A stretch of DNA of 33,338 nucleotides from an uncultured Lactobacillus sp. Lineage in GTDB: Bacteria; Bacillota; Bacilli; Lactobacillales; Lactobacillaceae. Below, in pieces: positions 3,438-19,110 of this stretch. The stretch is taken from contig CAJUTO010000018.1 in assembly GCA_910589675.1 (NCBI GenBank), positions 1-33,338 of the forward strand. Reading direction: 5' to 3'. The translations under genes and the position numbers were made by a program. Numbering within the stretch: the first letter of the stretch is position 1; every line of letters begins with the position of its first letter. Under the pieces are notes generated by a model that was not told where the DNA came from, did no database searches, and worked only from the letters and a program-made list of their open reading frames with translations.

Positions 3438-4865
3438 TCATTTTTTAGTGGTAGAATTTTTCGTATTCTCGACAGTTTGATTCTTTTCTAAAAATTTATT
3501 TAACACTTCTATGGTATCTTTAGCTACTGCAGTTATAGTTTCTAAATCTTTACTATTCCCAGTTGGTTGATAATTTTCTAGTTTCTTTAATACTTCTCCT
3601 TGCCGCTGACTAAATGCTTGTAGTGAATTAGAAGATTCATTTTTTTCTTTTGAATTAATGTGACGTAAACCCACTGTAAAGATCTGAGTAACTAAATGAT
3701 TTTGATTAAATGTTTGAACTTGACCATTCCCATCAAAATTATTAAAAACAACTTCAAAACCGGCTTCTTTAAGGGCAGTCATTGGAACGTCAGTATTGTA
3801 CAAATCATTGATAGATTCTCCCGGTAAACCATATAAAGGTCCTGAGGAGGTAATTTGCTTCCCATCATCATCTAGATCAATAAAGTTAACAATGGCCATC
3901 TGTTCATCAATACGTCTCTCCATCTCTTTTTCATCTACTTGACCTTTTATCCCCATAATAGCTTCTTGAACATCATTTTTCTTCAAGTCTCCATTACCTG
4001 AAGGCGAATAAGTAGATGAATCTGCTTGAGAAAGATCGATATTTTCAGTATCTGAAATATAGGTTGTATCTTCTTTAGGAATAGTTTTGTAAATAATGGA
4101 TATATCTTTATCTGGAGATTGAGGACTAATTATCTCTTGATCATGAGTATATCCTTCGATATCAGGAACAATTTGGTTAGGTGCAATTTTAGTTGGATCC
4201 TTTTCATCAGTTGCAAATTGATATGGCCCAACATTAGGAATTTCATCTCCATTTTCATCAACGGGAATTAGATATCCATTTAAATGATACGTTACTGAAA
4301 CTTCTACATCTTTATTGTCTACCTTAGGCCCAACTACAATTTTTTGATCTGCATGCACTCCAGGTAAAACCGGAACTTTTACATCATCAAATTTTTGACG
4401 ATCTAACTGCCAATCACTATCATACTTTCCATTTTCAATTCGTTGACTAGTAACTTTATCTGCAGTCAAAGTACGAAATAAGTGAGCAGTTTGAATATTT
4501 TTCTTTACTTTTGTAGGCGTTCCTTCATAAGTAACAGTAAAAGTAATAGGATGGTCATATTCTTTAGATGGAATTTTAGTTAATGGATGATCAAGATTAA
4601 CCGGACGGACATCATGCTTAAAACTTATTAAGTAGACCTTTGTGTCTTCGGTATAAGAAGGTTGACTGCCATCTCCATTAAAATTGTTCTTAACTAAAAC
4701 GTATCCTTTTCCTTCTAAATCCTTAATATCATTAGTTGGATCATATTCGATGGGGTCATTACTTTTTCCACTTAATTCAACAGACTCTCTAATACTCATT
4801 AACTCTTTATCTATATCAATAAAATTAATTACTGCCTTTTCACGTTTCTTTTTTAACCAAGCCAT
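3438..4865 (-). CDS. Mub-like module protein without signal peptide or anchor
   Basis: 475 residues assembled from the same modules as the giant adhesin upstream. Residues ~11-90 (AVINFIDIDKE to SFKHDVRPV) and ~325-405 (AIVNFIDLDDD to TVGLRH) are two copies of the first-half Mub module. Between them sit a VTYEG half-module and a MucBP-like stretch (GYLIPVDENGDEIPN) that matches the giant protein's GKIIPVDPSG block. A charged, probably coiled segment closes the protein. The N-terminus MAWLKKKREKAVINF goes straight into the first module: there is no signal peptide, no FGIRK motif, no LPxTG and no membrane segment. The gene is not obviously broken: AGGAAATG precedes the ATG, a TATACT box lies at 4886-4891, and a terminator follows. 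It may stay in the cytoplasm, leave by a non-classical route, or be an adhesin fragment that kept expression signals. Confidence 0.8.
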   Translation of the reverse strand: MAWLKKKREKAVINFIDIDKELMSIRESVELSGKSNDPIEYDPTNDIKDLEGKGYVLVKNNFNGDGSQPSYTEDTKVYLISFKHDVRPVNLDHPLTKIPSKEYDHPITFTVTYEGTPTKVKKNIQTAHLFRTLTADKVTSQRIENGKYDSDWQLDRQKFDDVKVPVLPGVHADQKIVVGPKVDNKDVEVSVTYHLNGYLIPVDENGDEIPNVGPYQFATDEKDPTKIAPNQIVPDIEGYTHDQEIISPQSPDKDISIIYKTIPKEDTTYISDTENIDLSQADSSTYSPSGNGDLKKNDVQEAIMGIKGQVDEKEMERRIDEQMAIVNFIDLDDDGKQITSSGPLYGLPGESINDLYNTDVPMTALKEAGFEVVFNNFDGNGQVQTFNQNHLVTQIFTVGLRHINSKEKNESSNSLQAFSQRQGEVLKKLENYQPTGNSKDLETITAVAKDTIEVLNKFLEKNQTVENTKNSTTKK

Positions 4866-5105: not shown

Positions 5106-8100
5106 TTAGTCTTTACGACGTTTACTTGATGCACCAGTTAATCCGGCTAAACCAATTAAGGCAAGAGTACCACCAGCAATAGCTGCTGCACTATCATCAG
5201 TGTTACCAGTTTGTGGTAATGTTGCAGTATGTGGAGTCACATTTCTTTCTGCGTTTCTTTCCTTAGTAGGTAATACTGGATTGCTGGAGTTTTGTGATTG
5301 AGTTGTTACTGAAACCTTTTCAACATTTGGAGTTGATTTATTCTCACTAGATTGGGTTGGATTCGAAGTCTCCTTTTTCTCAGGAACAGGTAAATTATTG
5401 TTATCATCACCCGCTGGAAGATTTGGAACTTCTAGAGTAATTGGATCTTTAGGTTCTTCTTTACTTTCTACATAGATCACAATCTTTTGATCACCCTTAA
5501 TAACTACAGATGGAATTTCAACATCTGGATTCACTATCTTGTATCCTTTATTTTCAAGATCTTTAATTAAAGTGCTCTTATCAAAATTAAAGTTTGTACC
5601 GACATTTTGTTTACCGCTCTTCTTACCATAGTTAGATAAATCAGTATTAGTAGTATTGTCATGTACAACAATTTCAATTGAACCTTGATCTGGTGTTGGC
5701 ACTTCATTCTTGGTGTAAGGAACATTAGTATCCTTAGTTGGTACTTCTGGAGTTACGTTTGGAATATTTGTTGTCCAACCTGGGATGTTTGGTGTTGGTT
5801 CATTTGGCGTTACCTTAGTTGGATCAGTTGGATCGTTATGGTATCCAGGGGTTGGGGCATCTGGAATTTGGTTTCCGGATGGATCTACTGGAATGATCTT
5901 ACCAATCTTGTGGTAGACAATAGTGATTTCCTTGTTGGCATCTTCTGGAGTTGCAGTTTGACCTGTGTAAGTCTTTTGGTCTGATACGTAACCATCAATT
6001 ACTACTGCATTCGCATCTGTGTACTTGTGACTAGTTTCATTCCATTGACCAGCCTTACCTGGCTTAGTGAAGACGAAGGTATCATTTGTATTATCATCAC
6101 GTAACTTGTTGCCTTGTTCATCTACATAGTGAACTACTTGCTTACCAACTACAGTTTGATCTGCTGGGATTGGAGTAGTCTTCTTAGCGTAGTTGATTGT
6201 AATTACAATGTTGCCGTTTGCGTGGTTGACTGTCTTAGAAGCAACTGTACCTGTAGTTGAATCAATATCACCTAAATCTTCATTTGATGAAGAAATATTA
6301 GTGATGTAGTAACCAGCGGCATTTGGTCCGTCAACTTGTTCAAAGTTTCCACTGTCGCTATTTCCACCCTTGACTGTCCAAGTTAATGGAGTAGTCCATT
6401 GACCGGTTACCTTGTCAAGTACTCCTCTACCAGTGAACTCAATTTCAGTGTGGCTTGCTGGAACATTCAATCCCTCTCCAACGTAGTTAATGGTACGAGT
6501 TACAGTCTTAGTCAAATCAGTTTGACCAGTACCGTCTGGGTACTTAGGACCAGTTGGATCGTTTGGATTGATTGGTTGACCCGGGGTACCTGGGTTCTCT
6601 GGCGTTACTGGAACAGTATCGTGAACGAATTCAACCGTGTAAGTTTGAGTACCATTGGTGTAAGTTACATTTCCTGTTGGGTAACCATCATGACTAAGCT
6701 TATAACCTTGGTTAGTGTACTTAGTAATGGTGTCCTTAGTACTGTAGTTTACGTTTGATCCTTCATTGCCTGTTGAAGTTGCAGTTTCTAAAGTCTTGCC
6801 AGTAGTCTTATCAAGGTAGGTAATAATTACTGTACCTTTTTCAACTGGAGTTGGGGTCACTGGTTTCTTAGCTAAAGTAATTACTACATTACTGTTTTGA
6901 CCAGTTGGAGTAATAGTTTCGCTAGCCACTACACCATTACTCATATCAACATTAGCTGAAGTGTTATTTTCACTAACCTTAACAATATTGTATTGAGTTG
7001 TATCAATTGCCTTCGTTGCATCGAAGTTTTGACTATCATTATCCCACTTAGTAGTTGTATGGCCTGTTACCTTATCAGTAGTAGTTTTACCCATAAATGT
7101 CACTGTTTGATGAACTGGAGAGTTAGCTTGACTACCATCTTCGTAAACATAAGTTACATCACGAGTAATAGTCTTGTTAGCATCCTTAGTTTCAATCCTA
7201 TGAGCTAGATGAACTTCAAACTTGTTTTCACCATTAGTAAATACTTGTTCCCCATCCTTAAAGTTGTTTCCAACTAACTCGTAACCCTTGCTAGTATAGT
7301 TTGCAATTCTATCAGCAGTTGTGTAATCAATCTTATCACCAACATTACCGCCAAAGCTTGCATTTTCAAGAGTATTACCAGTAGTGTCATCAATATAAAC
7401 GATTGAACCATTTGCTGGAACTGGAGTTGGGGTTGGGGTGTTCTTAGTGTAAGGAACAGGAGTATCCTTAGTTGGTACTTCTGGAGTTACATTTGGAACA
7501 TCAGTAGTCCAGCCTGGGATATTTGGTGTTGGTTCATTTGGCGTTACCTTAGTTGGATCAGTTGGATCATTGTGGTATCCAGGGGTTGGAGCATCTGGAA
7601 TTGGATTTCCGGATGGATCTACTGGAATGATCTTACCGATCTTGTGGTAAACGATAGTGATTTCCTTGTTGGCATCTTCTGGAGTTGCAGTTTGACCTTC
7701 GTATGTCTTTTGGTCTGATACGTAACCATCAATTACTACTGCATTTGCATCTGTGTACTTGTGACTAGTTTCATTCCATTGACCGGTCTTACCTGGCTTA
7801 GTGAAGACGAAGGTATCATTTGTATTGTCATCACGTAACTTGTTACCTTGTTCATCTACGTAGTGAACTACTTGCTTACCAACTACAGTTACATCATCTG
7901 GAGTTGGAGTTACCTTAGTGTAAGGAACCTCAGTATCCTTAGTTGGTACTTCTGGGGTTACATTTGGAACATCAGTAGTCCAGCCTGGGATGTTTGGTGT
8001 TGGTTCATTTGGCGTTACCTTAGTTGGATCGGTTGGATCATTGTGATATCCAGGAGTTGGGGCATCTGGAATTTGGTTTCCGGATGGATCTACTGGAATG

Positions 8101-11100
8101 ATCTTACCAATCTTGTGGTAGACAATAGTGATTTCCTTGTTGGCATCTTCTGGAGTTGCAGTTTGACCTTCATAAGTCTTTTGGTCTGATATGTAACCAT
8201 CAATTACTACTGCATTTGCATCTGAGTATTTGTGACTAGTTTCATTCCATTGACCGATCTTACCTGACTTAGTGAAGACGAAGGTATCGTTAGTATTGTC
8301 ATCACGTAACTTGTTACCTTGTTCATCTACATAGTGAACTACTTGCTTACCAACTACAGTTTGATCTGCTAGAGTTGGGGCTTCCTTTTTAGCTAAAGTA
8401 ATTACAACACTACTATTTTGACTATTTGGAGTAATAGTTTCGCTAGCCACTACACCGTTACTCATATCAACATTAGCTGAAGTGTTGTTTTCACTAACCT
8501 TAACAATATTGTATTGAGTTGTATCAATTACCTTCGTTGCTTCAAAGTCGTGATTGTCAGCATTCCAAGTAATCTTACCTGCACCAGTGATCTTGCCATT
8601 TTCTACAGTTACTAATTGACCAGTTACAAGATCAACAAAACCGTTACCGTTGAAGGTAAATGTTTGGTGAACTGGAGTCTCAGCTTGACTACCATCTTCG
8701 TAAACGTAAGTTACATCACGAGTTACAGTCTTAGTCAAAGTTTGTGGTACGAAGTTGTCTGGAATCGTATGTGGATTGTTTGGATCATTTGGATTTGGAA
8801 CTTCTTGACCTGGCTTACCTGGATTTTCAGGAGTAATTGGAGTAGTTGCATGAACTAAGTGAACTTCAAACTTGTTTTCTCCATCAGTAAATACTTCTTG
8901 ACCATCCTTGAAGTTGTTAGATACAAGATCATAACCCTTCTTCTCGTAATTTGCAATTCTATCAGCAGTTGTGTAATTGATCTTATCACCAACGTTACCG
9001 CCGAAGCTTGCATTTTCAAGAGTATTACCAGTAGTGTCATCGATGTAAACGATTGAACCATTTGCTGGAGTTGGAGTTACAGGAGTTTTAGCGTAAACAA
9101 CCTTAATAGTTGAACTTGGGGTGTCCTTGTTTACAGTTTGAGCAGTTACAGAACCGTCTTGACCGACAGTGAAGCCTGAAATTCCGTTACCACTTACAGA
9201 AATTACGTGGTAACCGTCTGCAGTCTTAGCTGCAATTGCATCAAAGCTGGCATCCTTATCTGGAGTCCAAGTTAAACCTTGAGCTAAACCAGTGATCTTC
9301 CCGTTTTCAACAGTTACCCACTTACCAGTTACATTATCTAAGTAACCTGAACCTTGGAATTTAGTTTCTTGATGTTCAGGAGTTAAACCTGACATCTCAT
9401 TACCTTGTTCATCAACATAAGTTACATCACGAGTAATTGTGCGATCAAGGTATTCCTTAGTGAAACCATTCTTGTCATCTGGATGATCTGGATTTACTGG
9501 AGTTACACCATGAACTAAATTGATTACCCACTTTTGGCTGATATCATTCTTATCATCAGTGTTGTCGTAGTTACCAAAGTTAATGCCAGCATAGTTAGTA
9601 GCATCTAAGTTAGTACCATTGTATGAAGCACCGTCCCAAACGTAGCCCTTGTTCAATAAGGTTTGAACAAATTCTTGAGCATTACCAAAGCTAATTGCAT
9701 CTCCTTCAAGACCAGGTTGAGTGTAACTACCTAAATCTTGCTCTTGACCTGGAGTCACATCGCGAATAGTCAATTTAGCATTTTGTTGCGTCTTAGGAAT
9801 TTCTGGATTCTTAGTCAAAGTGATAACAATTGTACTATTTTGACTTGATGGGGTTACGGTTTCCTTAGCTACTGCAGTGTCAGTAACTTGAGCGCTAGTA
9901 TTGGTTTCACTTACATTGGATACGTAGTAACCGTCATGGTTAATTGCATCTACATTACCAAAATCTTGTGAATCACGGTCCCAAGTAATCTTGCCTCGTT
10001 GATCAACAATGTTTCCATCTTTATCAACATTTACCAAGTTACCAGTTACCAAGTCAATAATACCTTGCCCCTTGAAGGTAACAGTTTGAACTGAATCATT
10101 ATGAGCTGGTGTACCATCTGCGTATTGGTATTTAACAGTACGAGTGATGGTCTTTTCCAAATTAGTCTTTGATAAGTTTGGATTGCTTGGCGTTGGTGTA
10201 CCTGGATGTTGTGGATCTACAGGATCAGTTGGATTTGCAGGGGTTTCTGGAGTTACAGGACGTGTACCATGCTTTACATTAATTACAATTCGTTGATCAC
10301 CATCAGTGTACTTAGTTGGAATTGTTGGCAATTCACCATCTAGTACATATCCCTTGCTTTCAAGTGCAGGTAAATCCTTATCATGTGGATTGTAACTATA
10401 TGAGGTTCCTTCATCTTCCTTAGTTTGTGGTCTACCATAGCCTGGAATATCAACATTATCAGTTGTGTCGTGGTAAACAACTTCAATAGTTCCTTGCTTG
10501 ATTGGAGTTGGAACCTCATCCTTAGCGTACTTAACAGTTACTGTGTAGTCAGCCCCTGTGTGGCTAATCTTAGCACTATCAACGTTTTGGTTATCAGTTG
10601 TATCCTTATCAACACTTACTACGTGGTAGCCTGGGATCTTAGGTGTAGTTACACCGTTGAATGTTTGATCTTCTGACCAAGTTAATGGAGTAGTCCATTC
10701 ACCAGTTACCTTATCAAGAACACCCTTAGCAGTGAAGTGTACTGGTTGTTGTACATCACTTGGAGTGTATTCACCTGCACCTTCATAGTGAACTGTACGA
10801 GTAATGTCCTTAGTAAGATCTGTTTCACTAGTACCAGTTGGATACTTAGGTTGTTCATCCTTTGGACGTGGATCATTAGGGTTGATTGGCTTATCTGGAG
10901 TACCTGGATTTTCTGGAGTTACTGGAACAGTACCATGTTTTACGTGGATTGTTACAGTAGTTGTCCCCTTAACAATTGATGGAGGAATATTACCATCAGT
11001 TGATACGTAAACGTAACCCTTGTTTTCAAGGTTAGTTAAATCAGTACTTGGGTTGTAAGTTACTTGAGTACCAACATCTTGAGTGCCAGTATCAGTACCT

Positions 11101-14100
11101 ACACCAGTCAAGTCCTTATTATCAGTATCATCGTGGAACTTAACAATTAGGTTACCTTGTTCAGCAACAATTGGGTTGTATTGAACTACAACGTTAATAT
11201 TGTCACTTGCATGAGTAATGCCAGTGTAACTCTTAACATTTCCGTTGCCATCGTCAGCACCGTCAGTTACAACCTTTGAAGTGTAACCATCAATATGCTT
11301 AGTTGGAACTAAGTTAAAGCTACCTTCATCCTTAGTACCATCAGTGATTGTCCAAGTAATACCCTTAGTTTGATCACTTAATTCCTTACCATTTGCATCC
11401 GTCCACTTACCGGTTACCTTGTCTAAGTAACCTGTACCTTGGAAGTGAAGAGTATCAGTTACAGGACTTGGAGTCTTATCGCCGGCACCTTCGTAAGTAA
11501 CAGTACGAGTTACATCCTTAGTCAAGTTGGTCTTATCAGTACTGGATGGGTACTTAGGACCATCTGGATTATCAGGATTGATTGGTTGATCTGGAGTACC
11601 TGGAGTTGTTGGAGTTACTGGTTGAATACCATGCTTAAAGGTTACATAGAAGGTTTGAGTATTACCGTTAATATTGTCAAAGCTTGGCTTAGTACCATTT
11701 GCGTCAAAGCCGTTTGATACTAATACGTAACCTTGTTTTTCGTATTCAGCAATCTTATCAGCAGTGCTGTAGTTAATGCTATCGCCTGCTTGACCAGTTA
11801 ATGGATCACTTTGGCCTAAGTCAACTGGGTGAGCTGGATCGTTTACATCTTGGTAAACAACTAAAGCATTTTGCTTATCTGGAGTTGGAGCGTCCTTAGT
11901 GTAAACAACGTTTACTACTTGGTTAACACCACGTTCTGGAGTAGCAAATTTTACAGTCTTAGTACCTGGAGTGTAGCCAGTTACTTCTGGTGAATCAACA
12001 TCAGTAAAGGCGCTCTTATCAGAAGTCCAAGTACCTTCATTAACGATTGCACCAGTTACTTGATCAACTGTGTTAGTTCTAGACCAATTAATAATTTGAG
12101 TTGGGCTATCATCAGGAGCCTTCGTACCATCTGCCATGATGTAGTGAACATGAGCAGTAGTAGTTGCAGTTTCCTTCTTTTCACTAGTTGCATGTTTCAA
12201 GTAAATCTTGAAGCTTTGGTTAGTATTAGAATCATTGTCAAAGCTTGGGTAAGTGAAGCCGTTAGTTGCATCCCCACTCATACTTTGACCTTCAGATTTT
12301 TCAAAGGTGTAACCATTCTTCAAGTAGTTTTGCAATTGAATGTTTGAACCACCGAAGCTAATTTGCTTACCTGATTCGCCACCTGCTGAATAAGTTGCCA
12401 ATACACGTTGGTTCTGTGGATCATTATCATCAATGATTTGTAAATCAGCAGCTTGAGCAGAGCGGTTGTAAACAACAGTTACACGTTGGTTTACATTACG
12501 TTCTGGAGCATTGAATTGAACAGTTTCAAGACTTGGAGTGTAACCATCTTTAGAAAGATCTGGTGAATCTACATTAGTAAATGCATTCTTGTCAGCCTTC
12601 CAATCGCCCTCATTTACAACTGCACCAGTCACTTTGTCTACTTTATTAGTTCTAGTGTAAGTAATAGTTTGTAGATCGCTATCTGCTGGAGCTTGTACAC
12701 CATTATCAGCAACAACATAGTGAACTTGAGCAGTGGCTTGAGCAGTTTCAGTCTTATCTTCAGTATCGTGAATCAAGTAAATCTTGAAGTCTTGAGCAGT
12801 ATTACCGTAAGTTGGGTAAGTGTAACCACTTTGTGCATCCCCACTAAGGTTACCAGCAGTCTTTTGAACCTTGTAACCTTGGCTTAAGTAACTTTGAAGG
12901 ATTTCATTTGAGTTAGCAAAAGTAATTTGATCTTCACTCTTACCTTCGTTACTAAATGAAGCTAATTGCTTAGGTGCGTTAGCATCGTTGTTATCGATAA
13001 TTTCAAGGGTTGCCTTTTGAGTAACTTCAGGTGACTTATTCTTAGTGTAAGTTACAGTTACATCGTTAACCTTTTGACCTGGGTAAACAGTTACGCCGCC
13101 AACAGTTGAAATGTCAACCTTGTCGTAACCTACTTCGCTAGGAGTCTTAGAAGCAACTGAATCCATATTTTGAGTTGTTGGAGTCCAAGCACGGTCCTTA
13201 TCAGTAGTAGTTACATTGGTAGTTCCATCAGTACTGTAGCCCAAGATTTGACCAGTTACCTTATCGATAACGGCATTACGTTCAAAGGAAACGGTTTGAG
13301 TGTAAGTACTCTTACCATCTGGTGAACCATTTACTGGAGTAGTAGTTCCGTCTTCATTTACACCAACATAGTTAATCTTACGAGTTACTTCAGTAGTTAA
13401 AGCTCCCTTAGTTAAACCATCTGGGTAAACTGATGGCTTATTACGTGGATCGTTAGGGTTAATATTTCCACCTGGATTATGTGGAGTCTTTGGTGTGATT
13501 ACTTCAGTTTGGTGACCGTAGTAAACATTAACCACAGCATCTTTGGTATTTGCATCAACAGCTACATGATCGGCTTGTGCCAAATCAGGAGCAGTGTAAC
13601 CAGAATTTGAAAGATCTGGTGAAGTTACTTGAGCCCAGTCACCAGTGTTCCAACCATCAGCAGTTGCTCCTTTAGTAAAGGTCTTACCATCAGCACTAAC
13701 GCTTCCATAACCCATATCTTGACCAGTTGATGAAACAACGTGCGTACGTGATAAAGTTACGGTTTGAGCTGTAGGATTGTCCTTAATTAACTCATTAGGA
13801 ATCTTTTCACCGGTTACCTTGTCGTAATAGTTAATTGTACGAGTTACAGTCTTAGTTTCAGTAGTACCAGTGTAAGTTGGTGCTTCTGGAGTCTGAGGAT
13901 TGTAAGTAACAACAGTTGTTGGGTTTTGATTTGGATCTGGAGTTGGTCCTGGAACATTAGTCTTGTCTGGAGTGTATCCATCAAGGTTTGGTGTTGGTAC
14001 ATCAGTATAATTATCTGGAGTAGTCCAGTTTCCAGTTGGAGTTGTTACACCAGTTACCTTGTCCTTGGTTCCTGGACGAGTCCAAGTAATAGTTTGGACA

Positions 14101-17100
14101 TTGTCTGTTGGTGGATTAGTCTTACCGTCTGAAACAACATAGTGAACAGTTGAAGTAGTAGTCTTCTTGTCTGTTACATTTTCAGTATCATGAACTAAGT
14201 ACAACTTAAAGTGTTGATCACTAGTACTATTGTTGTCGAAGTTACTGAAACTGATTTGACCATAAGAAGCTGGGTTAGAAGTTTGGTTTTGGTCATTTAC
14301 AAAACTATCGATCTTGTAACCCTTAGCAATTAAATCAGCAACGTAGTTTGCAGAACCACTGAATGAAATTTGGGTGCCAGTCTTACCACTGTTATTGAAG
14401 TTGTTAAGTTCCTTGTTGTTATCACTCTTGTCGTAAATGACTAGGTCAGCTTTTTGATCAACTTGAGGATTTGGATTGTAAACAACAGTTACTACTTGGT
14501 CACGGTTAGGTTGTGGTGTAGTAAAGTTAGCTACAGCTTGATCTGGAGTGTAATTAGTAAGCTCAGGTGAAGTTACACTAGTAAAGCTGCTCTTATCTGG
14601 AGTCCAAGTTCCTTCAGTAGTTGCACCAGTAACCTTGTCAGTAGTATTAGTTCTAGTCCAATTGATTGTTTGAGTTGGGCTATCTGCCGGAGCAGCTGGC
14701 TTGTTAGGATCGTTACCTGCTACAACATAGTGAACGTGAGCATTAGTTGTTGCATTTTCAGTCTTAGTATCAGTTCCGTGAGCCAAGTAAATATTGAAGC
14801 TTTGAACATTGCCATCAATACTATCAAAATTACCAAAGTTAATATTTGAAGCAGTTCCAATTGAATTGCCACTTGCATCAGTTGCACTATCAAATACGTA
14901 GCCTGAATTTAAGTAAGCTTGAAGGGTTTGTGGTTCACCGTCAAAGCTAATTGCACTACCCTTAGTACCATTGTTGTTCTCAAAAGCAGCTAATTGCTTA
15001 TTATTTTCACTCTTATCGTAAATAGTAACCTTAGCTTTTTGTGGAGTATCTGGGGTCTTAGCATCTGGAGTGTAAACAATAGTTACATCAATATCATCCG
15101 AATTTGGATTTACAGTAATTGCATTTGCGCTACCATCCGCATTAGCATTTACGTTACCTGTGATGTGGTAGCCAGCAACAGCTTGACCAGCAACTTGAGC
15201 TAATGTACCAGTTGATGGGGTCCAAACAGTATCACCACTCTTGCCAGTTACTAAGTCCTTAGTAGCAGTTCCAGTAAAGCTTACTTTTTGATCTGCTTGT
15301 GGAGTCAAGTGACTTTCTGGAGTAGTGCCATCAGTAAAGATGTAGTGGAAACGACGAGTTACATCTTCATTAGTAGTTACTTGTTGAGTTTGGTGACCAT
15401 AGTAAACATTGTAAACAAGATCTTGAGTAGTTGGAGTTACTTCATGAGCCGCTACAATACTTGCACTTGTTTCATCTTGGAATTCAGGAGCAGTGTAGTT
15501 ATATGCGCTAAGATCACTTGAACGCTTAGCAGCAAATTGAGTACTGCTTTCACCAGCAGCGGTATGCCAATCTTGAGTTCTAAATGACTTACCATCAGTT
15601 GCAATAGTACCGTAACCTACAACCTTACCATCTTGATCCAAAACTTGAGTACGAGTGAAAGTTACTGAATCAGTAACTGGGTTTTGTGAAATTAAGTTAG
15701 ATGGGATTTTTGCGCCGGTTACCTTGTCGTAATAATTAATTGTACGATTAATAGTCTTAGATTCTTCAACACCTTGGTGGTAAGTAGTAGTTTGAACTGG
15801 GTTCTTAAAGTGAACAACAAATGCTTGATTGGTGTTGTCGTCATTGTCGTAGGCTGGGAAGCCAACACTAGTAAAACTACCACTAGCTGAACCATTAATT
15901 ACGCCATTACCAGTTGTACCGTTGTAAATGTAACCTTGGCTAATCAAGTTAGCAACAGTAGTACCCGCATTGTCAAAGCTGATTTGACTACCTGCATCTC
16001 CACTAGCATTTTGTTGCGGACTTAAACTTGCACCAGTATCATCGTTAACAAAAGTAATGTTAGCATTTTGCTTGTTAGCAACAGGAGTAGCAGCCTGGTA
16101 AAGGATAATTACATCTTGGTTACCATTAGTTGCATTATTAACAAACTCAGAACTAGCACCATCTGCTATTCCACCTGACTTTAAAGTAGAGCGAGAAATT
16201 GCACTAACGTACATAGCCTTCCAATTAGTAGCATCGTAACGTTCTGCATCATAAGCATTCAAGGTTACAGTACCCTTGGTATCTAATTGTTGGGTTACAT
16301 AGAGTCTATTTGGACCTGTGTTAGTAACAGTAAAGTCAATATCACCAGCACGGTAGTTTTTAATTTGACCAGTCAATGGAGTATCTAATAAGTCTGATGC
16401 TTTAATCGCTACACCGTTATTAGTAGTTAAAGTACGATCAGTAGCCAATTGACTTGCACCATATACTCCATTATTTCTCTTAACTAAATCGTAAGTTTTA
16501 CCATTAGCGGTAATTTTGTCATATTGAGCACCAGTTAAGTTGTATTCTTGACCGGAAATAGTGTCATCAGATACTTTATGAGCTAGTACTTCACCAGTAT
16601 CTGCATCTACATACCAAACATTTTGCTTTACTTTAGTTGGAACCAATCCACCAATACTTTGCCAATAACTATCTTGAACAGTTGTACCACCGTTATTCCA
16701 AATCATTTGTAAAGTACGAGGAGTTTGATCGGCAGATCCACTAACACCAATAGTAACAGGACTTTCACCGTCTGCATCAGTTACATCAATACGCGTAAAA
16801 GTATTCAAACCTGTTCCAGAAAGAGAACTATTAATTGTCTTAACATAATTATAAGTTCCCCCTTGGTAAGTGTTTCCATTTGTTTGGTCAATAGTCAATT
16901 TACCACCAAGAGTAGGTTTACTTGGTGTAGTAGCTTGGGAAGAGCTAGTAATCAACTTTCCATTAGCATAAAGATAAAGTGTTTGTCCCGGATTAGATCT
17001 ATCGGTAGCGAGGACATAAGTTATCTTTCTAGATGTATCATAATCTGCTACATACCCATATTTATCGGCTGGAATACCAGTTACACTAGTGTTATAGCCA

Positions 17101-17876
17101 GTTGGATCAGTAAAGTTAAAATCTATCTTCTGACTGTCTATATCAGTAACTTCCTGATTAGATGTAGCTACAAGAGAAGTATTAAGTAAAGATGACAATT
17201 GAGCAGAGGATAAAGATGCACTACGAGTCTTTAATCCTTGAAATTGTGCAACTGTAGTATTGGACTCAACACTAACATTTTGTTGAACAGTATTTTGATT
17301 TTCTTTTTCAGTAGTTTGAGCAGATTGACTCTGAACATTAGAAGCAACTGCTTGATTTGTATTAGAAGTAACAGTATTTGATTGATCTTTTGCTACTTCT
17401 TGATCATTTGATTGATTGACCTGGGTTGCATCGGTTGCCTGTTTAGTTTCCTGAATAGGTTGATTTTGAAGAGCAGCATCATTATTTGTTTGAGTAGCTT
17501 GTGTCTCCTCATGAGTTTCATTTTTAGGAGCAGAAGCTACCTCATTTTCCACTTTAGTTACTTGAGTGTCATTATTTATTGAAGCTGATACCTCTTGGCC
17601 TTGAGTGTTTTCTACCTTGTCTGAAGTTTGATCAGCTTGAACATCCAAAGTAGTAGGTGCCTTCGCAACTTCTATCTTCGTATCAGAAGCAATAGGTTGA
17701 ACATTTTTATTACTATCAGTAGAAGCAGCATCTTGGCTATCGTTGTCATTAACGGCTGCATGTGCCGAATTAGTATTAGTTCCTAGCCAAAGAGTAGTAC
17801 CTAAAAGAACAGAAGTAGCCCCAATAGTAAGTTTACGAATCCCAAAGTGGGATTGTCTTTCAGCGGTTTCTTCCAT
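5106..17876 (-). CDS. Giant LPQTG-anchored Mub-like mucus-binding adhesin, 4256 aa
   Basis: Cell-wall protein expected to bind mucin or host glycans. Residues 11-15 (FGIRK) and the following hydrophobic run form a YSIRK-type signal with likely cleavage after AHA (residue 40). Residues ~41-215 are Gln/Asn/Ser/Thr-rich, ~215-600 form a non-repeated N-terminal domain, and ~600-4140 hold about 14 Mub-type modules, each pairing an xIxYxDxxxG...GY...H block with an (R)T(I/V)xY block, plus three near-identical MucBP-like repeats. The sorting signal is LPQTG at 4220-4224, then a hydrophobic segment and KRRKD. There is no break in 12.7 kb. The only start in this frame is the ATG at 17876, which has no ribosome site and a TAA two codons upstream; the canonical start at 17905 is out of frame by one base (see that entry). 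A sortase gene lies just upstream. Confidence 0.93.
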   Translation of the reverse strand: MEETAERQSHFGIRKLTIGATSVLLGTTLWLGTNTNSAHAAVNDNDSQDAASTDSNKNVQPIASDTKIEVAKAPTTLDVQADQTSDKVENTQGQEVSASINNDTQVTKVENEVASAPKNETHEETQATQTNNDAALQNQPIQETKQATDATQVNQSNDQEVAKDQSNTVTSNTNQAVASNVQSQSAQTTEKENQNTVQQNVSVESNTTVAQFQGLKTRSASLSSAQLSSLLNTSLVATSNQEVTDIDSQKIDFNFTDPTGYNTSVTGIPADKYGYVADYDTSRKITYVLATDRSNPGQTLYLYANGKLITSSSQATTPSKPTLGGKLTIDQTNGNTYQGGTYNYVKTINSSLSGTGLNTFTRIDVTDADGESPVTIGVSGSADQTPRTLQMIWNNGGTTVQDSYWQSIGGLVPTKVKQNVWYVDADTGEVLAHKVSDDTISGQEYNLTGAQYDKITANGKTYDLVKRNNGVYGASQLATDRTLTTNNGVAIKASDLLDTPLTGQIKNYRAGDIDFTVTNTGPNRLYVTQQLDTKGTVTLNAYDAERYDATNWKAMYVSAISRSTLKSGGIADGASSEFVNNATNGNQDVIILYQAATPVANKQNANITFVNDDTGASLSPQQNASGDAGSQISFDNAGTTVANLISQGYIYNGTTGNGVINGSASGSFTSVGFPAYDNDDNTNQAFVVHFKNPVQTTTYHQGVEESKTINRTINYYDKVTGAKIPSNLISQNPVTDSVTFTRTQVLDQDGKVVGYGTIATDGKSFRTQDWHTAAGESSTQFAAKRSSDLSAYNYTAPEFQDETSASIVAAHEVTPTTQDLVYNVYYGHQTQQVTTNEDVTRRFHYIFTDGTTPESHLTPQADQKVSFTGTATKDLVTGKSGDTVWTPSTGTLAQVAGQAVAGYHITGNVNANADGSANAITVNPNSDDIDVTIVYTPDAKTPDTPQKAKVTIYDKSENNKQLAAFENNNGTKGSAISFDGEPQTLQAYLNSGYVFDSATDASGNSIGTASNINFGNFDSIDGNVQSFNIYLAHGTDTKTENATTNAHVHYVVAGNDPNKPAAPADSPTQTINWTRTNTTDKVTGATTEGTWTPDKSSFTSVTSPELTNYTPDQAVANFTTPQPNRDQVVTVVYNPNPQVDQKADLVIYDKSDNNKELNNFNNSGKTGTQISFSGSANYVADLIAKGYKIDSFVNDQNQTSNPASYGQISFSNFDNNSTSDQHFKLYLVHDTENVTDKKTTTSTVHYVVSDGKTNPPTDNVQTITWTRPGTKDKVTGVTTPTGNWTTPDNYTDVPTPNLDGYTPDKTNVPGPTPDPNQNPTTVVTYNPQTPEAPTYTGTTETKTVTRTINYYDKVTGEKIPNELIKDNPTAQTVTLSRTHVVSSTGQDMGYGSVSADGKTFTKGATADGWNTGDWAQVTSPDLSNSGYTAPDLAQADHVAVDANTKDAVVNVYYGHQTEVITPKTPHNPGGNINPNDPRNKPSVYPDGLTKGALTTEVTRKINYVGVNEDGTTTPVNGSPDGKSTYTQTVSFERNAVIDKVTGQILGYSTDGTTNVTTTDKDRAWTPTTQNMDSVASKTPSEVGYDKVDISTVGGVTVYPGQKVNDVTVTYTKNKSPEVTQKATLEIIDNNDANAPKQLASFSNEGKSEDQITFANSNEILQSYLSQGYKVQKTAGNLSGDAQSGYTYPTYGNTAQDFKIYLIHDTEDKTETAQATAQVHYVVADNGVQAPADSDLQTITYTRTNKVDKVTGAVVNEGDWKADKNAFTNVDSPDLSKDGYTPSLETVQFNAPERNVNQRVTVVYNRSAQAADLQIIDDNDPQNQRVLATYSAGGESGKQISFGGSNIQLQNYLKNGYTFEKSEGQSMSGDATNGFTYPSFDNDSNTNQSFKIYLKHATSEKKETATTTAHVHYIMADGTKAPDDSPTQIINWSRTNTVDQVTGAIVNEGTWTSDKSAFTDVDSPEVTGYTPGTKTVKFATPERGVNQVVNVVYTKDAPTPDKQNALVVYQDVNDPAHPVDLGQSDPLTGQAGDSINYSTADKIAEYEKQGYVLVSNGFDANGTKPSFDNINGNTQTFYVTFKHGIQPVTPTTPGTPDQPINPDNPDGPKYPSSTDKTNLTKDVTRTVTYEGAGDKTPSPVTDTLHFQGTGYLDKVTGKWTDANGKELSDQTKGITWTITDGTKDEGSFNLVPTKHIDGYTSKVVTDGADDGNGNVKSYTGITHASDNINVVVQYNPIVAEQGNLIVKFHDDTDNKDLTGVGTDTGTQDVGTQVTYNPSTDLTNLENKGYVYVSTDGNIPPSIVKGTTTVTIHVKHGTVPVTPENPGTPDKPINPNDPRPKDEQPKYPTGTSETDLTKDITRTVHYEGAGEYTPSDVQQPVHFTAKGVLDKVTGEWTTPLTWSEDQTFNGVTTPKIPGYHVVSVDKDTTDNQNVDSAKISHTGADYTVTVKYAKDEVPTPIKQGTIEVVYHDTTDNVDIPGYGRPQTKEDEGTSYSYNPHDKDLPALESKGYVLDGELPTIPTKYTDGDQRIVINVKHGTRPVTPETPANPTDPVDPQHPGTPTPSNPNLSKTNLEKTITRTVKYQYADGTPAHNDSVQTVTFKGQGIIDLVTGNLVNVDKDGNIVDQRGKITWDRDSQDFGNVDAINHDGYYVSNVSETNTSAQVTDTAVAKETVTPSSQNSTIVITLTKNPEIPKTQQNAKLTIRDVTPGQEQDLGSYTQPGLEGDAISFGNAQEFVQTLLNKGYVWDGASYNGTNLDATNYAGINFGNYDNTDDKNDISQKWVINLVHGVTPVNPDHPDDKNGFTKEYLDRTITRDVTYVDEQGNEMSGLTPEHQETKFQGSGYLDNVTGKWVTVENGKITGLAQGLTWTPDKDASFDAIAAKTADGYHVISVSGNGISGFTVGQDGSVTAQTVNKDTPSSTIKVVYAKTPVTPTPANGSIVYIDDTTGNTLENASFGGNVGDKINYTTADRIANYEKKGYDLVSNNFKDGQEVFTDGENKFEVHLVHATTPITPENPGKPGQEVPNPNDPNNPHTIPDNFVPQTLTKTVTRDVTYVYEDGSQAETPVHQTFTFNGNGFVDLVTGQLVTVENGKITGAGKITWNADNHDFEATKVIDTTQYNIVKVSENNTSANVDMSNGVVASETITPNSQNSSVVITLAKKEAPTLADQTVVGKQVVHYVDEQGNKLRDDNTNDTFVFTKSGKIGQWNETSHKYSDANAVVIDGYISDQKTYEGQTATPEDANKEITIVYHKIGKIIPVDPSGNQIPDAPTPGYHNDPTDPTKVTPNEPTPNIPGWTTDVPNVTPEVPTKDTEVPYTKVTPTPDDVTVVGKQVVHYVDEQGNKLRDDNTNDTFVFTKPGKTGQWNETSHKYTDANAVVIDGYVSDQKTYEGQTATPEDANKEITIVYHKIGKIIPVDPSGNPIPDAPTPGYHNDPTDPTKVTPNEPTPNIPGWTTDVPNVTPEVPTKDTPVPYTKNTPTPTPVPANGSIVYIDDTTGNTLENASFGGNVGDKIDYTTADRIANYTSKGYELVGNNFKDGEQVFTNGENKFEVHLAHRIETKDANKTITRDVTYVYEDGSQANSPVHQTVTFMGKTTTDKVTGHTTTKWDNDSQNFDATKAIDTTQYNIVKVSENNTSANVDMSNGVVASETITPTGQNSNVVITLAKKPVTPTPVEKGTVIITYLDKTTGKTLETATSTGNEGSNVNYSTKDTITKYTNQGYKLSHDGYPTGNVTYTNGTQTYTVEFVHDTVPVTPENPGTPGQPINPNDPTGPKYPDGTGQTDLTKTVTRTINYVGEGLNVPASHTEIEFTGRGVLDKVTGQWTTPLTWTVKGGNSDSGNFEQVDGPNAAGYYITNISSSNEDLGDIDSTTGTVASKTVNHANGNIVITINYAKKTTPIPADQTVVGKQVVHYVDEQGNKLRDDNTNDTFVFTKPGKAGQWNETSHKYTDANAVVIDGYVSDQKTYTGQTATPEDANKEITIVYHKIGKIIPVDPSGNQIPDAPTPGYHNDPTDPTKVTPNEPTPNIPGWTTNIPNVTPEVPTKDTNVPYTKNEVPTPDQGSIEIVVHDNTTNTDLSNYGKKSGKQNVGTNFNFDKSTLIKDLENKGYKIVNPDVEIPSVVIKGDQKIVIYVESKEEPKDPITLEVPNLPAGDDNNNLPVPEKKETSNPTQSSENKSTPNVEKVSVTTQSQNSSNPVLPTKERNAERNVTPHTATLPQTGNTDDSAAAIAGGTLALIGLAGLTGASSKRRKD
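5713..6156 (-). repeat. 444-bp MucBP-like repeat, copy A
   Basis: Encodes about adhesin residues 3908-4054 (TVVGKQVVHYVDEQGNKL to VPYTK). Nearly identical in DNA to copies B (7447-7890) and C (7918-8361), with the same 444-base length and only scattered differences, suggesting recent duplication or gene conversion. Confidence 0.9.
7447..7890 (-). repeat. 444-bp MucBP-like repeat, copy B
   Basis: Same unit as copy A, in tandem with copy C at a 471-base period. The peptide differs from the others mainly at single positions such as GNPIPDAP versus GNQIPDAP. Confidence 0.9.
7918..8361 (-). repeat. 444-bp MucBP-like repeat, copy C
   Basis: Third copy, directly upstream in transcription of copy B. 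It is flanked on both sides of the B/C pair by a second duplicated set: a TYVYEDGSQA half-module (about 6870-7190 and 8390-8735) and a SIVYIDDTTG half-module (about 7205-7420 and 8850-9066). The whole segment from about 6870 to 9066 therefore looks built by repeated duplication. Confidence 0.9.
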
Positions 17877-17905
17877 TTTTTAATTTTATTATTCTTTGAA
17901 ACCAT
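17801..17905 (-). other. Canonical adhesin start, out of frame by one base at an A6 tract
   Basis: The ATG at 17905 has the best ribosome site of the region (GGAGGAACT immediately upstream) and begins MVSKNNKIKK, the usual N-terminal lead of Mub-type adhesins in these lactobacilli. At the A tract 17876-17881 this frame reads AAA TGG instead of AAA ATG, so it departs from MEETAERQSHFGIRK and ends at TAG (17801-17803) after 34 residues. Seven A instead of six would join the two frames into one intact protein. As written, either the inner ATG at 17876 is used by coupling, or the gene is off, or the base count is wrong. Confidence 0.8.
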
Positions 17906-17950
17906 AGTTCCTCCAGTAATTTATAATTTATACAAATATTGCGTAAAATA

Positions 17951-17993
17951 AAATAACACACTGCCTAATGCTTATTTGATATAAGTGTTATTT
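17951..17993 (-). promoter_or_regulatory. Hairpin in the adhesin 5' leader
   Basis: Perfect 9-base inverted repeat AAATAACAC / GTGTTATTT (17951-17959, 17985-17993) with an inner 5-base stem (CTTAT / ATAAG). It lies between the promoter at 18016-18044 and the ribosome site at 17910-17914. It could be an RNA structure in the leader or a protein-binding site. There is no T run, so it is not a simple terminator. Confidence 0.45.
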
Positions 17994-18015
17994 AAATACA
18001 AAAAATATTTTCCTA

Positions 18016-18044
18016 ATTATACATATACCAACGCATATAGGCAA
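18016..18044 (-). promoter_or_regulatory. Adhesin promoter
   Basis: On the minus strand TTGCCT (18039-18044), 17 bases, then a perfect TATAAT (18016-18021). The predicted start leaves a leader of about 105 bases before the ATG at 17905. It gives the adhesin its own transcription start although sortase lies upstream on the same strand. The rest of 17906-18181 is AT-rich and non-coding. Confidence 0.65.
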
Positions 18045-18181
18045 GGTGTTTTTTTATTTTGTATGAAATTTAATTATTAAATTACTGGTAAATAACGCTT
18101 TTAAAGTGAATTTATAGAAAGTAAAAAATAAAAAGATGTTTTACTTATGAGAAAAAATACCATAACTGTGAGCGTCCCCTA

Positions 18182-18859
18182 TTATTTTTCAAATTTAAAC
18201 TTTTTCCTATAAAAAACTCTCTTTACAGATTTTTTCAACTTTGAAAATTTATATGTCTTTCTTAACGTAGCTCTAACCAAAATTCGTTTTTTATTATCAT
18301 TTGTACAAGTTAACATAGTTAAAAAATTACTCTTAGAATTAAGTGCTAGATTGACCTGAGTTGGAAAGATAATACGAACTGATTCTATTTTATATTCTTT
18401 TACTAACTTAAAATCAGTAATAAAAACCTCCCTATCAATCAGTTTATTATTTGCAAGTGGTGAAAATAACGCCTTACTAAACGATCCGAGGTTGTGTGCC
18501 CCAATAATAATATTTGAATTACTATCTATTTTTCTTTTGACTAACATCCCTGCACCAAATTGATAGACAGCATCATTCGTATTTTCCGCTACCGGAACCT
18601 CCATATTTAAACTAGGAACAATAAGAACTTCCTGATATTTAATATCATTCTTAAAAAATTGTCTTATTAAAGATAATATCGTTATATATTTAACGGAATT
18701 CCAATCATTTATCCCATTATTTTGCAAACTATTCTGACTATTGATTTTGGGTTGGTAGCAATCAATAATCCAACTTTCTAAAATTGGGCTGAAAAAACCT
18801 ATCCCAATAAAAAATGCCCCAATTAATAGAAGACGATATATAACTTTTTTCATCCTCAT
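18182..18859 (-). CDS. Sortase, class A-like
   Basis: Membrane-bound transpeptidase of 225 residues that would cleave LPxTG-type signals and join the protein to peptidoglycan. An N-terminal membrane anchor spans residues ~5-25. The catalytic triad is visible as His122 (IIIGAHNLG), Cys185 (LTMLTC) and Arg192 (KRILVRA), and FSPLANNKL matches the segment after the catalytic His in class A enzymes. The C-terminus is strongly basic. The ATG at 18859 overlaps the previous stop as ATGA, indicating translational coupling. Its position right before the LPQTG adhesin suggests a dedicated enzyme, although the housekeeping sortase could be elsewhere. The gene is markedly AT-rich compared with the adhesin. 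Confidence 0.85.
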   Translation of the reverse strand: MRMKKVIYRLLLIGAFFIGIGFFSPILESWIIDCYQPKINSQNSLQNNGINDWNSVKYITILSLIRQFFKNDIKYQEVLIVPSLNMEVPVAENTNDAVYQFGAGMLVKRKIDSNSNIIIGAHNLGSFSKALFSPLANNKLIDREVFITDFKLVKEYKIESVRIIFPTQVNLALNSKSNFLTMLTCTNDNKKRILVRATLRKTYKFSKLKKSVKRVFYRKKFKFEK

Positions 18860-19110
18860 GATTCTTTTTTATTCTCAAGAGATGTACTGATAAAATCAAT
18901 GCAATTTACAATTGGGAAACTTAAAATCGCATAGCCAAAATTCCTTAATCTATCACTTCTCTTATCATAAGTAACATATGGTAATTTCTTAGTGGTATAA
19001 ACCGTTTTTTCATGCAATACTTTACGTTGAAGATCGCTGCCAAAATTAATAGCGAAAGATATAAGAATGAGTAGGATACTTCCTAAGTACCAAAGTTTTC
19101 TATGTTTCAT
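18856..19110 (-). CDS. Small membrane protein coupled to sortase, unknown
   Basis: 84 residues with a good ribosome site (AGGGAG about eight bases upstream). A hydrophobic stretch covers residues 7-24 (YLGSILLILISFAI), a basic middle part follows, then a second weaker hydrophobic stretch covers 58-76 (FGYAILSFPIVNCIDFIS). I recognise no family. It is the first gene of the unit and its stop overlaps the sortase start by four bases. A role with the sortase or in adhesin export is inference from position only. Confidence 0.6.
   Translation of the reverse strand: MKHRKLWYLGSILLILISFAINFGSDLQRKVLHEKTVYTTKKLPYVTYDKRSDRLRNFGYAILSFPIVNCIDFISTSLENKKES

What the first reader, a model, noticed from the sequence alone, without database searches (positions are those of the whole stretch)
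17870..17914. Giant adhesin start is one base out of frame at an A6 tract: phase switch, decay, or base-call error
The only strong ribosome site (GGAGGAAC) serves the ATG at 17905 and starts MVSKNNKIKK, but after the A6 tract this frame is lost and ends after 34 residues. The 4256-residue frame begins at an inner ATG that overlaps the tract, has no ribosome site and has a TAA two codons upstream. Seven A would give MVSKNNKIKKMEETAERQSHFGIRK. The added lead supplies four Lys, whereas MEETAERQ alone gives a poorly charged signal-peptide start, so the inner start would probably export badly. The remaining 12.7 kb is intact, which argues against long-standing decay and for a reversible switch, a very recent mutation or a sequencing error.
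Basis: partly seen in the sequence, partly recalled or inferred. Interest (0 to 1): 0.75.

Follow-up and report, generated by a model that had tools for sequence, protein, structure and literature searches.

The report
Slippery start tract of giant adhesin
A run of six A's at the very start of a giant mucus-binding surface protein gene in a gut-type Lactobacillus puts the protein out of frame, a near-identical relative carries the in-frame form, and so this looks like a real on/off polymorphism of a kind known from other bacteria and not a sequencing mistake.

Summary
The only good ribosome site drives MVSKNNKIKK; the frame is lost at an A6 tract (17876-17881, minus strand) and ends after 34 residues, while the remaining 4256-residue adhesin (YSIRK signal, 18 Muc_B2, 10 MucBP_2, LPQTG) is open. 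A lone base-call error is very unlikely: of 17 stored protein records of this allele length 15 (36 contigs, the window's included) begin at the inner Met and 2 at MVSK, and one record of each kind differ by a single residue. A near-identical MAG has seven A and an in-frame lead, but is broken by a second one-base A-tract difference further on. A diverged adhesin (G037) shows the same A6 loss with an otherwise intact, LPQTG-ended body. The start tract is the gene's only A/T run of six or more. Best reading: a slippage-prone 5' poly(A) contingency tract, caught OFF. It works like the published A7/A6 tract of Listeria inlA. Reversibility is inferred, not shown; recurrent loss, or low-level use of the inner start, remain open. 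New member of a known kind; I saw no report of it in lactobacilli in the (capped) result lists of the searches named.

The parts
17876..17881 (-). A6 homopolymer tract at which the lead frame is lost (overlaps the inner ATG)
17910..17914 (-). Shine-Dalgarno GGAGG
17801..17905 (-). 34-residue out-of-frame product of the SD-linked ATG (MVSKNNKIKKWKKPLK...), stop included
5106..17876 (-). giant mucin-binding adhesin frame from the inner ATG, 4256 aa: YSIRK signal, 18 Muc_B2, 10 MucBP_2, LPQTG anchor
18016..18044 (-). sigma-70-like promoter TTGCCT-17-TATAAT upstream of the lead (consensus match only)
18182..18859 (-). sortase-family gene directly upstream, same strand; possible partner of the adhesin (inferred from position)
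15289..15289 (-). place in the body where the near-identical G069 copy has A4 and the window A5; G069 is frame-broken here, the window is not

Best explanation
A 5' poly(A) contingency tract sits between the SD-linked start and the YSIRK signal of a cell-wall mucin adhesin. With seven A the ribosome reads MVSKNNKIKK straight into MEETAERQ...YSIRK and the adhesin is made, exported and anchored (ON). With six A, as in the window, the same ribosomes run out of frame and stop after 34 residues, so only traces could arise from the inner ATG (OFF). Replication slippage changes the tract length now and then, and selection in the gut sorts ON and OFF cells. Shown: both natural forms in near-identical DNA, the same OFF lesion in a second adhesin with an intact body, and that this is the gene's only A/T run of six or more. 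Inferred: that OFF means no surface protein, that slippage is the mutation, and that it goes both ways in one lineage.
For: (1) A near-identical MAG contig (G069 = CANOGU010000006.1) has seven A here and an in-frame lead. (2) Of 17 protein records of this allele length 15 begin at the inner Met (36 contigs by the table, the window's own record included) and 2 at MVSK (one contig each); P0014 (MVSK) and P0016 (MEET) differ at 1 of 4256 residues. (3) On a tree of the first 1500 residues of 27 of the 30 homologues (17 inner, 10 long) the annotated start changes at least 5 times, 3 forced by starred branches. (4) In G037 a diverged adhesin has the same A6 loss, and its frame runs 1049 residues to an LPQTG anchor. 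(5) Of 24 MVSKNN-type leads read in DNA 3 are out of frame; 2 of the 4 with an unbroken A6/A7 tract running into an ATG are out, 1 of the other 20 (one-sided p about 0.06, computed by hand; two of the four are the same gene). (6) The tract is the only A/T run of six or more at the gene. (7) Precedent: inlA of Listeria has natural A7 (in frame) and A6 (8-residue stub) alleles, with A6 to A7 at about 5.5e-7 and A7 to A6 at about 3.9e-8 (PMC2831843: passages and section 10 seen).
Against: No reads, no two isolates of one clone, no expression data. The start state of the protein records is inferred from the annotated start: P0029 (L. intestinalis, inner start) is identical over the 867 residues compared to G020, whose DNA has A7 and an in-frame lead, so an inner annotated start does not prove A6. 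The protein search only sees frames of 0.55-1.75 times 4256 residues, so broken bodies are invisible and intactness is over-counted. G069 is broken at another A tract. Controls that do not help: 11 of the 24 leads hold another A6 run near their start (codons 3-5) and all 11 are in frame; and if L009 and L010, whose A6 at the critical place is not followed directly by ATG, are added, the count is 2 of 6 against 1 of 18 (p about 0.14, by hand). A6 is short, and the published rates are low.
Confidence: 0.55

Rival explanations
1. Recurrent loss of function: expression of the giant adhesin is often selected against, and one-base deletions in short A tracts (at the start or inside) silence it; A6 lineages rarely or never return.
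For: The two near-identical copies compared each carry one frame-breaking A-tract lesion, at different places. G027 has an out-of-frame lead by another lesion and a body that stops after 561 residues. The adhesin is absent from the locus in the same-species genome G059.
Against: 15 full-length inner-start records and the 1049-residue G037 body are intact although off by this reading; but short frames could not be seen by the search.
Confidence: 0.26
2. The A6 form is still translated: the inner ATG, or a -1 slip of the ribosome on AAA AAA, gives enough adhesin, and the lead is dispensable.
For: The inner-start form is the common one in this allele (15 of 17 records) with an intact body. PF04650 still scores the inner-start signal. 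G010 has a 3481-residue adhesin body with no MVSK lead in frame.
Against: No SD match of five or more before the inner ATG, and TAA two codons upstream; inner-start charge 0 against +2 or more in 52 of 52 SD-supported leads; 26 of the 30 best lead matches in the genus keep the lead in frame. The ribosomal slip is my inference; no test was run.
Confidence: 0.15
3. Base-call or assembly error in the window.
For: One base in a homopolymer; the window comes from a 59-contig assembly.
Against: The inner-start form is stored for 36 contigs by the table, in records with different longest contigs, and the same lesion is in the diverged DNA of G037. Window and G069 align over 25.8 kb at 99.76%; apart from a compensated pair and a 9-base repeat unit, both in the adhesin, the only indels within the ORFs are the two in the adhesin named here.
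Confidence: 0.04

Closest known systems
inlA 5' poly(A) tract of Listeria monocytogenes (Orsi, Bowen and Wiedmann 2010, PMC2831843)
   Same: A7 in frame, A6 out of frame, at the 5' end of a surface-protein gene; a clade there in which A6 and A7 alleles differ by that A alone; interrupted tracts in other lineages (A2GA4 there; AAG AAA ATG and the like here).
   Different: Other genus and protein; change rates measured there, not here; here the tract overlaps an inner ATG, so gene callers still report a full-length frame; the body here is 12.8 kb and the carrier a Lactobacillus.
Replication-slippage ON/OFF G-tracts of sortase-dependent pili in Bifidobacterium breve UCC2003 (PMC9187656)
   Same: Gut commensal, sortase-dependent surface adhesin, homopolymer inside the coding region joins or separates a 5' frame and the body; no active start for the second frame.
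   Different: G10-G11 tracts in pilus operons, measured by Maximum Depth Sequencing; here A6/A7 in a single giant adhesin, not measured.
Mucin-binding YSIRK/LPXTG adhesins of Lactobacillus (Muc_B2/MucBP_2; e.g. P0026, named mucin-binding protein [Lactobacillus johnsonii] by its source)
   Same: Signal and repeats, and the lead MVSKNNKIKK in front of MEE.
   Different: The window's copy has its lead out of frame.

Membership tests
Slipped-strand phase-variable (contingency) locus | homopolymer in or before the coding region whose length sets the frame | tested here: met
   relative with seven A in frame
Slipped-strand phase-variable (contingency) locus | both states occur among otherwise near-identical alleles | tested here: met
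   in DNA window vs G069 (G069 is broken further on); by annotated start P0014 vs P0016, 1 of 4256 residues
Slipped-strand phase-variable (contingency) locus | reversible, heritable switching in one strain at a rate above point mutation | not testable with these tools
   no reads or resequenced colonies; at least 5 changes of annotated start on the tree, direction unknown
Slipped-strand phase-variable (contingency) locus | OFF state abolishes the product | not testable with these tools
   no SD and unusual charge at the inner start, no expression data
YSIRK/LPXTG mucin-binding adhesin | YSIRK signal, Muc_B2/MucBP_2 repeats, LPXTG anchor | tested here: met
   (PF04650, PF17966 x18, PF17965 x10, PF00746); LPQTG
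YSIRK/LPXTG mucin-binding adhesin | binds mucin | not testable with these tools
   domain names only

The most novel reading that the evidence does not exclude
An A7/A6 start tract is a shared contingency device of MVSKNN-type giant mucin adhesins in Lactobacillus: diverged members (window family and G037 in DNA; perhaps P0022, P0028 and P0029 by annotated start) go OFF at the same lysine-lysine-methionine codons, the body is kept free of other long A/T runs so that switching is confined to the start, and OFF is the common state in stored sequences of this allele.
Probability: 0.3. Interest if true: 0.65.

Novelty: new member of a known kind. Interest (0 to 1): 0.46.

Why it matters
Mucus adhesion is a main colonisation trait of gut lactobacilli (general knowledge). 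If the largest adhesin is toggled by one base, strains called adhesin-positive from a genome may not display it, and annotation hides this because the inner ATG keeps the frame looking complete. It would put a Lactobacillus beside B. breve pili and inlA, and the OFF/ON ratio could be counted directly in existing metagenome reads.

Tried and rejected
A functional 34-residue peptide: rejected as not conserved; the G037 counterpart differs and has 25 residues. Plasmid-borne copy: no near match to window 17500-18300 in the plasmid collection. Copies in viral contigs: two hits, unrelated when read. Short or broken versions of this very gene: a protein search with residues 1-330 of the 874-residue G069 frame gave 22 more distant proteins and none of this gene. 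Literature: among the papers listed I saw none on a poly(A) start tract in a Lactobacillus adhesin, but the lists were capped (20 of 38 listed; 30: 20 of 233; 34: none found; 40: 12 of 18; 41: 10 of 10; 57: 10 of 10; 58: 12 of 43; titles and abstract starts only) and the library lacks most subscription journals. Papers opened: PMC2831843 (outline with abstract, passages, section 10) and PMC9187656 (passages). Species: probably L. johnsonii or a close sister; this is inference (G059, of the same species, is a single 1.95-Mb contig; the record named L. johnsonii is 90% identical over the searched N-terminal region), not a test.

Full report
What is there. The window is contig C18 of a 1.68-Mb, 59-contig assembly that the tools place in one genus with 74 other held genomes; a near-identical contig is titled uncultured Lactobacillus sp.. 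On the minus strand, GGAGG (17914-17910) precedes ATG 17905, whose frame reads MVSKNNKIKK, meets A6 at 17881-17876 and ends after 34 residues. The 4256-residue frame starts at an inner ATG that shares the last A of the tract; TAA lies two codons upstream. Pfam finds a YSIRK signal, 18 Muc_B2 and 10 MucBP_2 stretches and a Gram-positive anchor. LPQTG stands near the C-terminus, which ends KRRKD.

Is the lead the true start? Most likely yes. Of the 30 best matches to the in-frame lead in 75 genomes of the genus (E up to 5e-13), 26 match from lead residue 1-3 on; the four that do not are the window, G037, G027 and G010. Of 52 YSIRK leads with an SD match of five or more none has a net charge below +2, while the inner start has 0. 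These 52 come from 88 start regions (28 loci, 60); 84 of the 88 gave a recognisable signal. The match list was cut by the tool and I took only part of it, so this is a sample of the genus.

Both states are natural. G069 (same contig as CANOGU010000006.1) aligns to window 7487-33285 at 99.76% and has seven A with the lead in frame. That copy is itself broken: it has A4 where the window has A5 at 15289, and its frame ends after 874 residues. A protein search found 30 homologues: 18 begin at the inner Met, 11 at MVSK, 1 at another start. In the allele of the window's length 15 records (36 contigs by the table's column; P0009 is the window's own) begin at MEET and 2 at MVSK; P0014 and P0016, one of each, differ at one residue. 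A tree of the first 1500 residues of 27 of these 30 (P0002-P0028; P0029-P0031 left out as distant) needs at least 5 changes of state, 3 forced by well-supported branches; the labels are more clustered than in most shuffles, as near-copies make them. The annotated start is only a proxy: P0029 is annotated from the inner Met, yet G020, identical to it over the 867 residues compared, has A7 and an in-frame lead in DNA.

The same lesion elsewhere. Among 24 MVSKNN-type leads read in DNA, three are out of frame: the window, G037 and G027. G037 has the same A6 before TGG, and its body is open for 1049 residues to an LPQTG anchor. G027 lost its frame by another change, and its body stops after 561 residues, as decay would predict. 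G010 has no MVSK lead in frame and only a four-base SD match before its inner ATG, although its body is open for 3481 residues; this speaks for a usable inner start or for a silent copy. Leads with an unbroken A tract running into the ATG are out of frame in 2 of 4, others in 1 of 20. Against this, 11 of the 24 leads hold another A6 run at codons 3-5 and all 11 are in frame, and with L009 and L010 (A6 at the critical place, not followed directly by ATG) the count is 2 of 6 against 1 of 18. The tract's own proneness is therefore a hint only.

The tract stands out in its gene. The adhesin body has no A or T run of six or more in 12,771 bases; the start tract is the only one. Synonymous shuffles expect 2.9 A6+ runs, and 4.25% have none, so the purge in the body is modest evidence. 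Of 14 other window ORFs 13 carry such runs.

Mechanism. The simplest account is a 5' poly(A) contingency tract. Orsi et al. (PMC2831843) describe this in Listeria inlA: A7 in frame, A6 truncated, a clade whose alleles differ by that A alone, A6 to A7 at about 5.5e-7 and A7 to A6 at about 3.9e-8, and interrupted, stable tracts in other lineages. Interrupted versions are also seen in Lactobacillus leads. B. breve pili use longer G tracts in a like way (PMC9187656). By likeness the window's gene works like inlA's tract; of the defining features of a phase-variable locus two were met and two, reversible switching among them, could not be tested.

Verdict. Observation confirmed; base-call error very unlikely; a natural tract-length polymorphism that sets the frame is shown in DNA; reversible phase variation is the best but unproven reading, with recurrent loss as the main rival.

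Noticed in passing
window 3438-4865 (-): A 475-residue frame with MucBP_2 and Muc_B2 stretches, no YSIRK signal in the Pfam result and no LPXTG motif at its end lies directly downstream of the adhesin; it looks like a remnant of a second adhesin.
   Followed up: partly
window 18182-18859 (-): Sortase-family gene directly upstream of the adhesin; in the same-species genome G059, which lacks the adhesin at this locus, about 310 bases (window 18650-18961) of the matching stretch are missing and the frame is altered at its start.
   Followed up: partly
L037:1589-4213 (G069): Near-identical adhesin copy with in-frame start but broken after 874 residues at a second short A tract.
   Followed up: yes
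L106 (G037): Diverged adhesin, 1049 residues with LPQTG, with the same A6 out-of-frame start.
   Followed up: yes
L108 (G010): 3481-residue adhesin frame with no MVSK lead in frame; the inner ATG has only a four-base SD match.
   Followed up: partly
P0044: Lead reads LKKWENSAEHKSHYSIRK, with KKW where others have KKM, as if a shortened tract had been compensated; DNA not seen.
   Followed up: no
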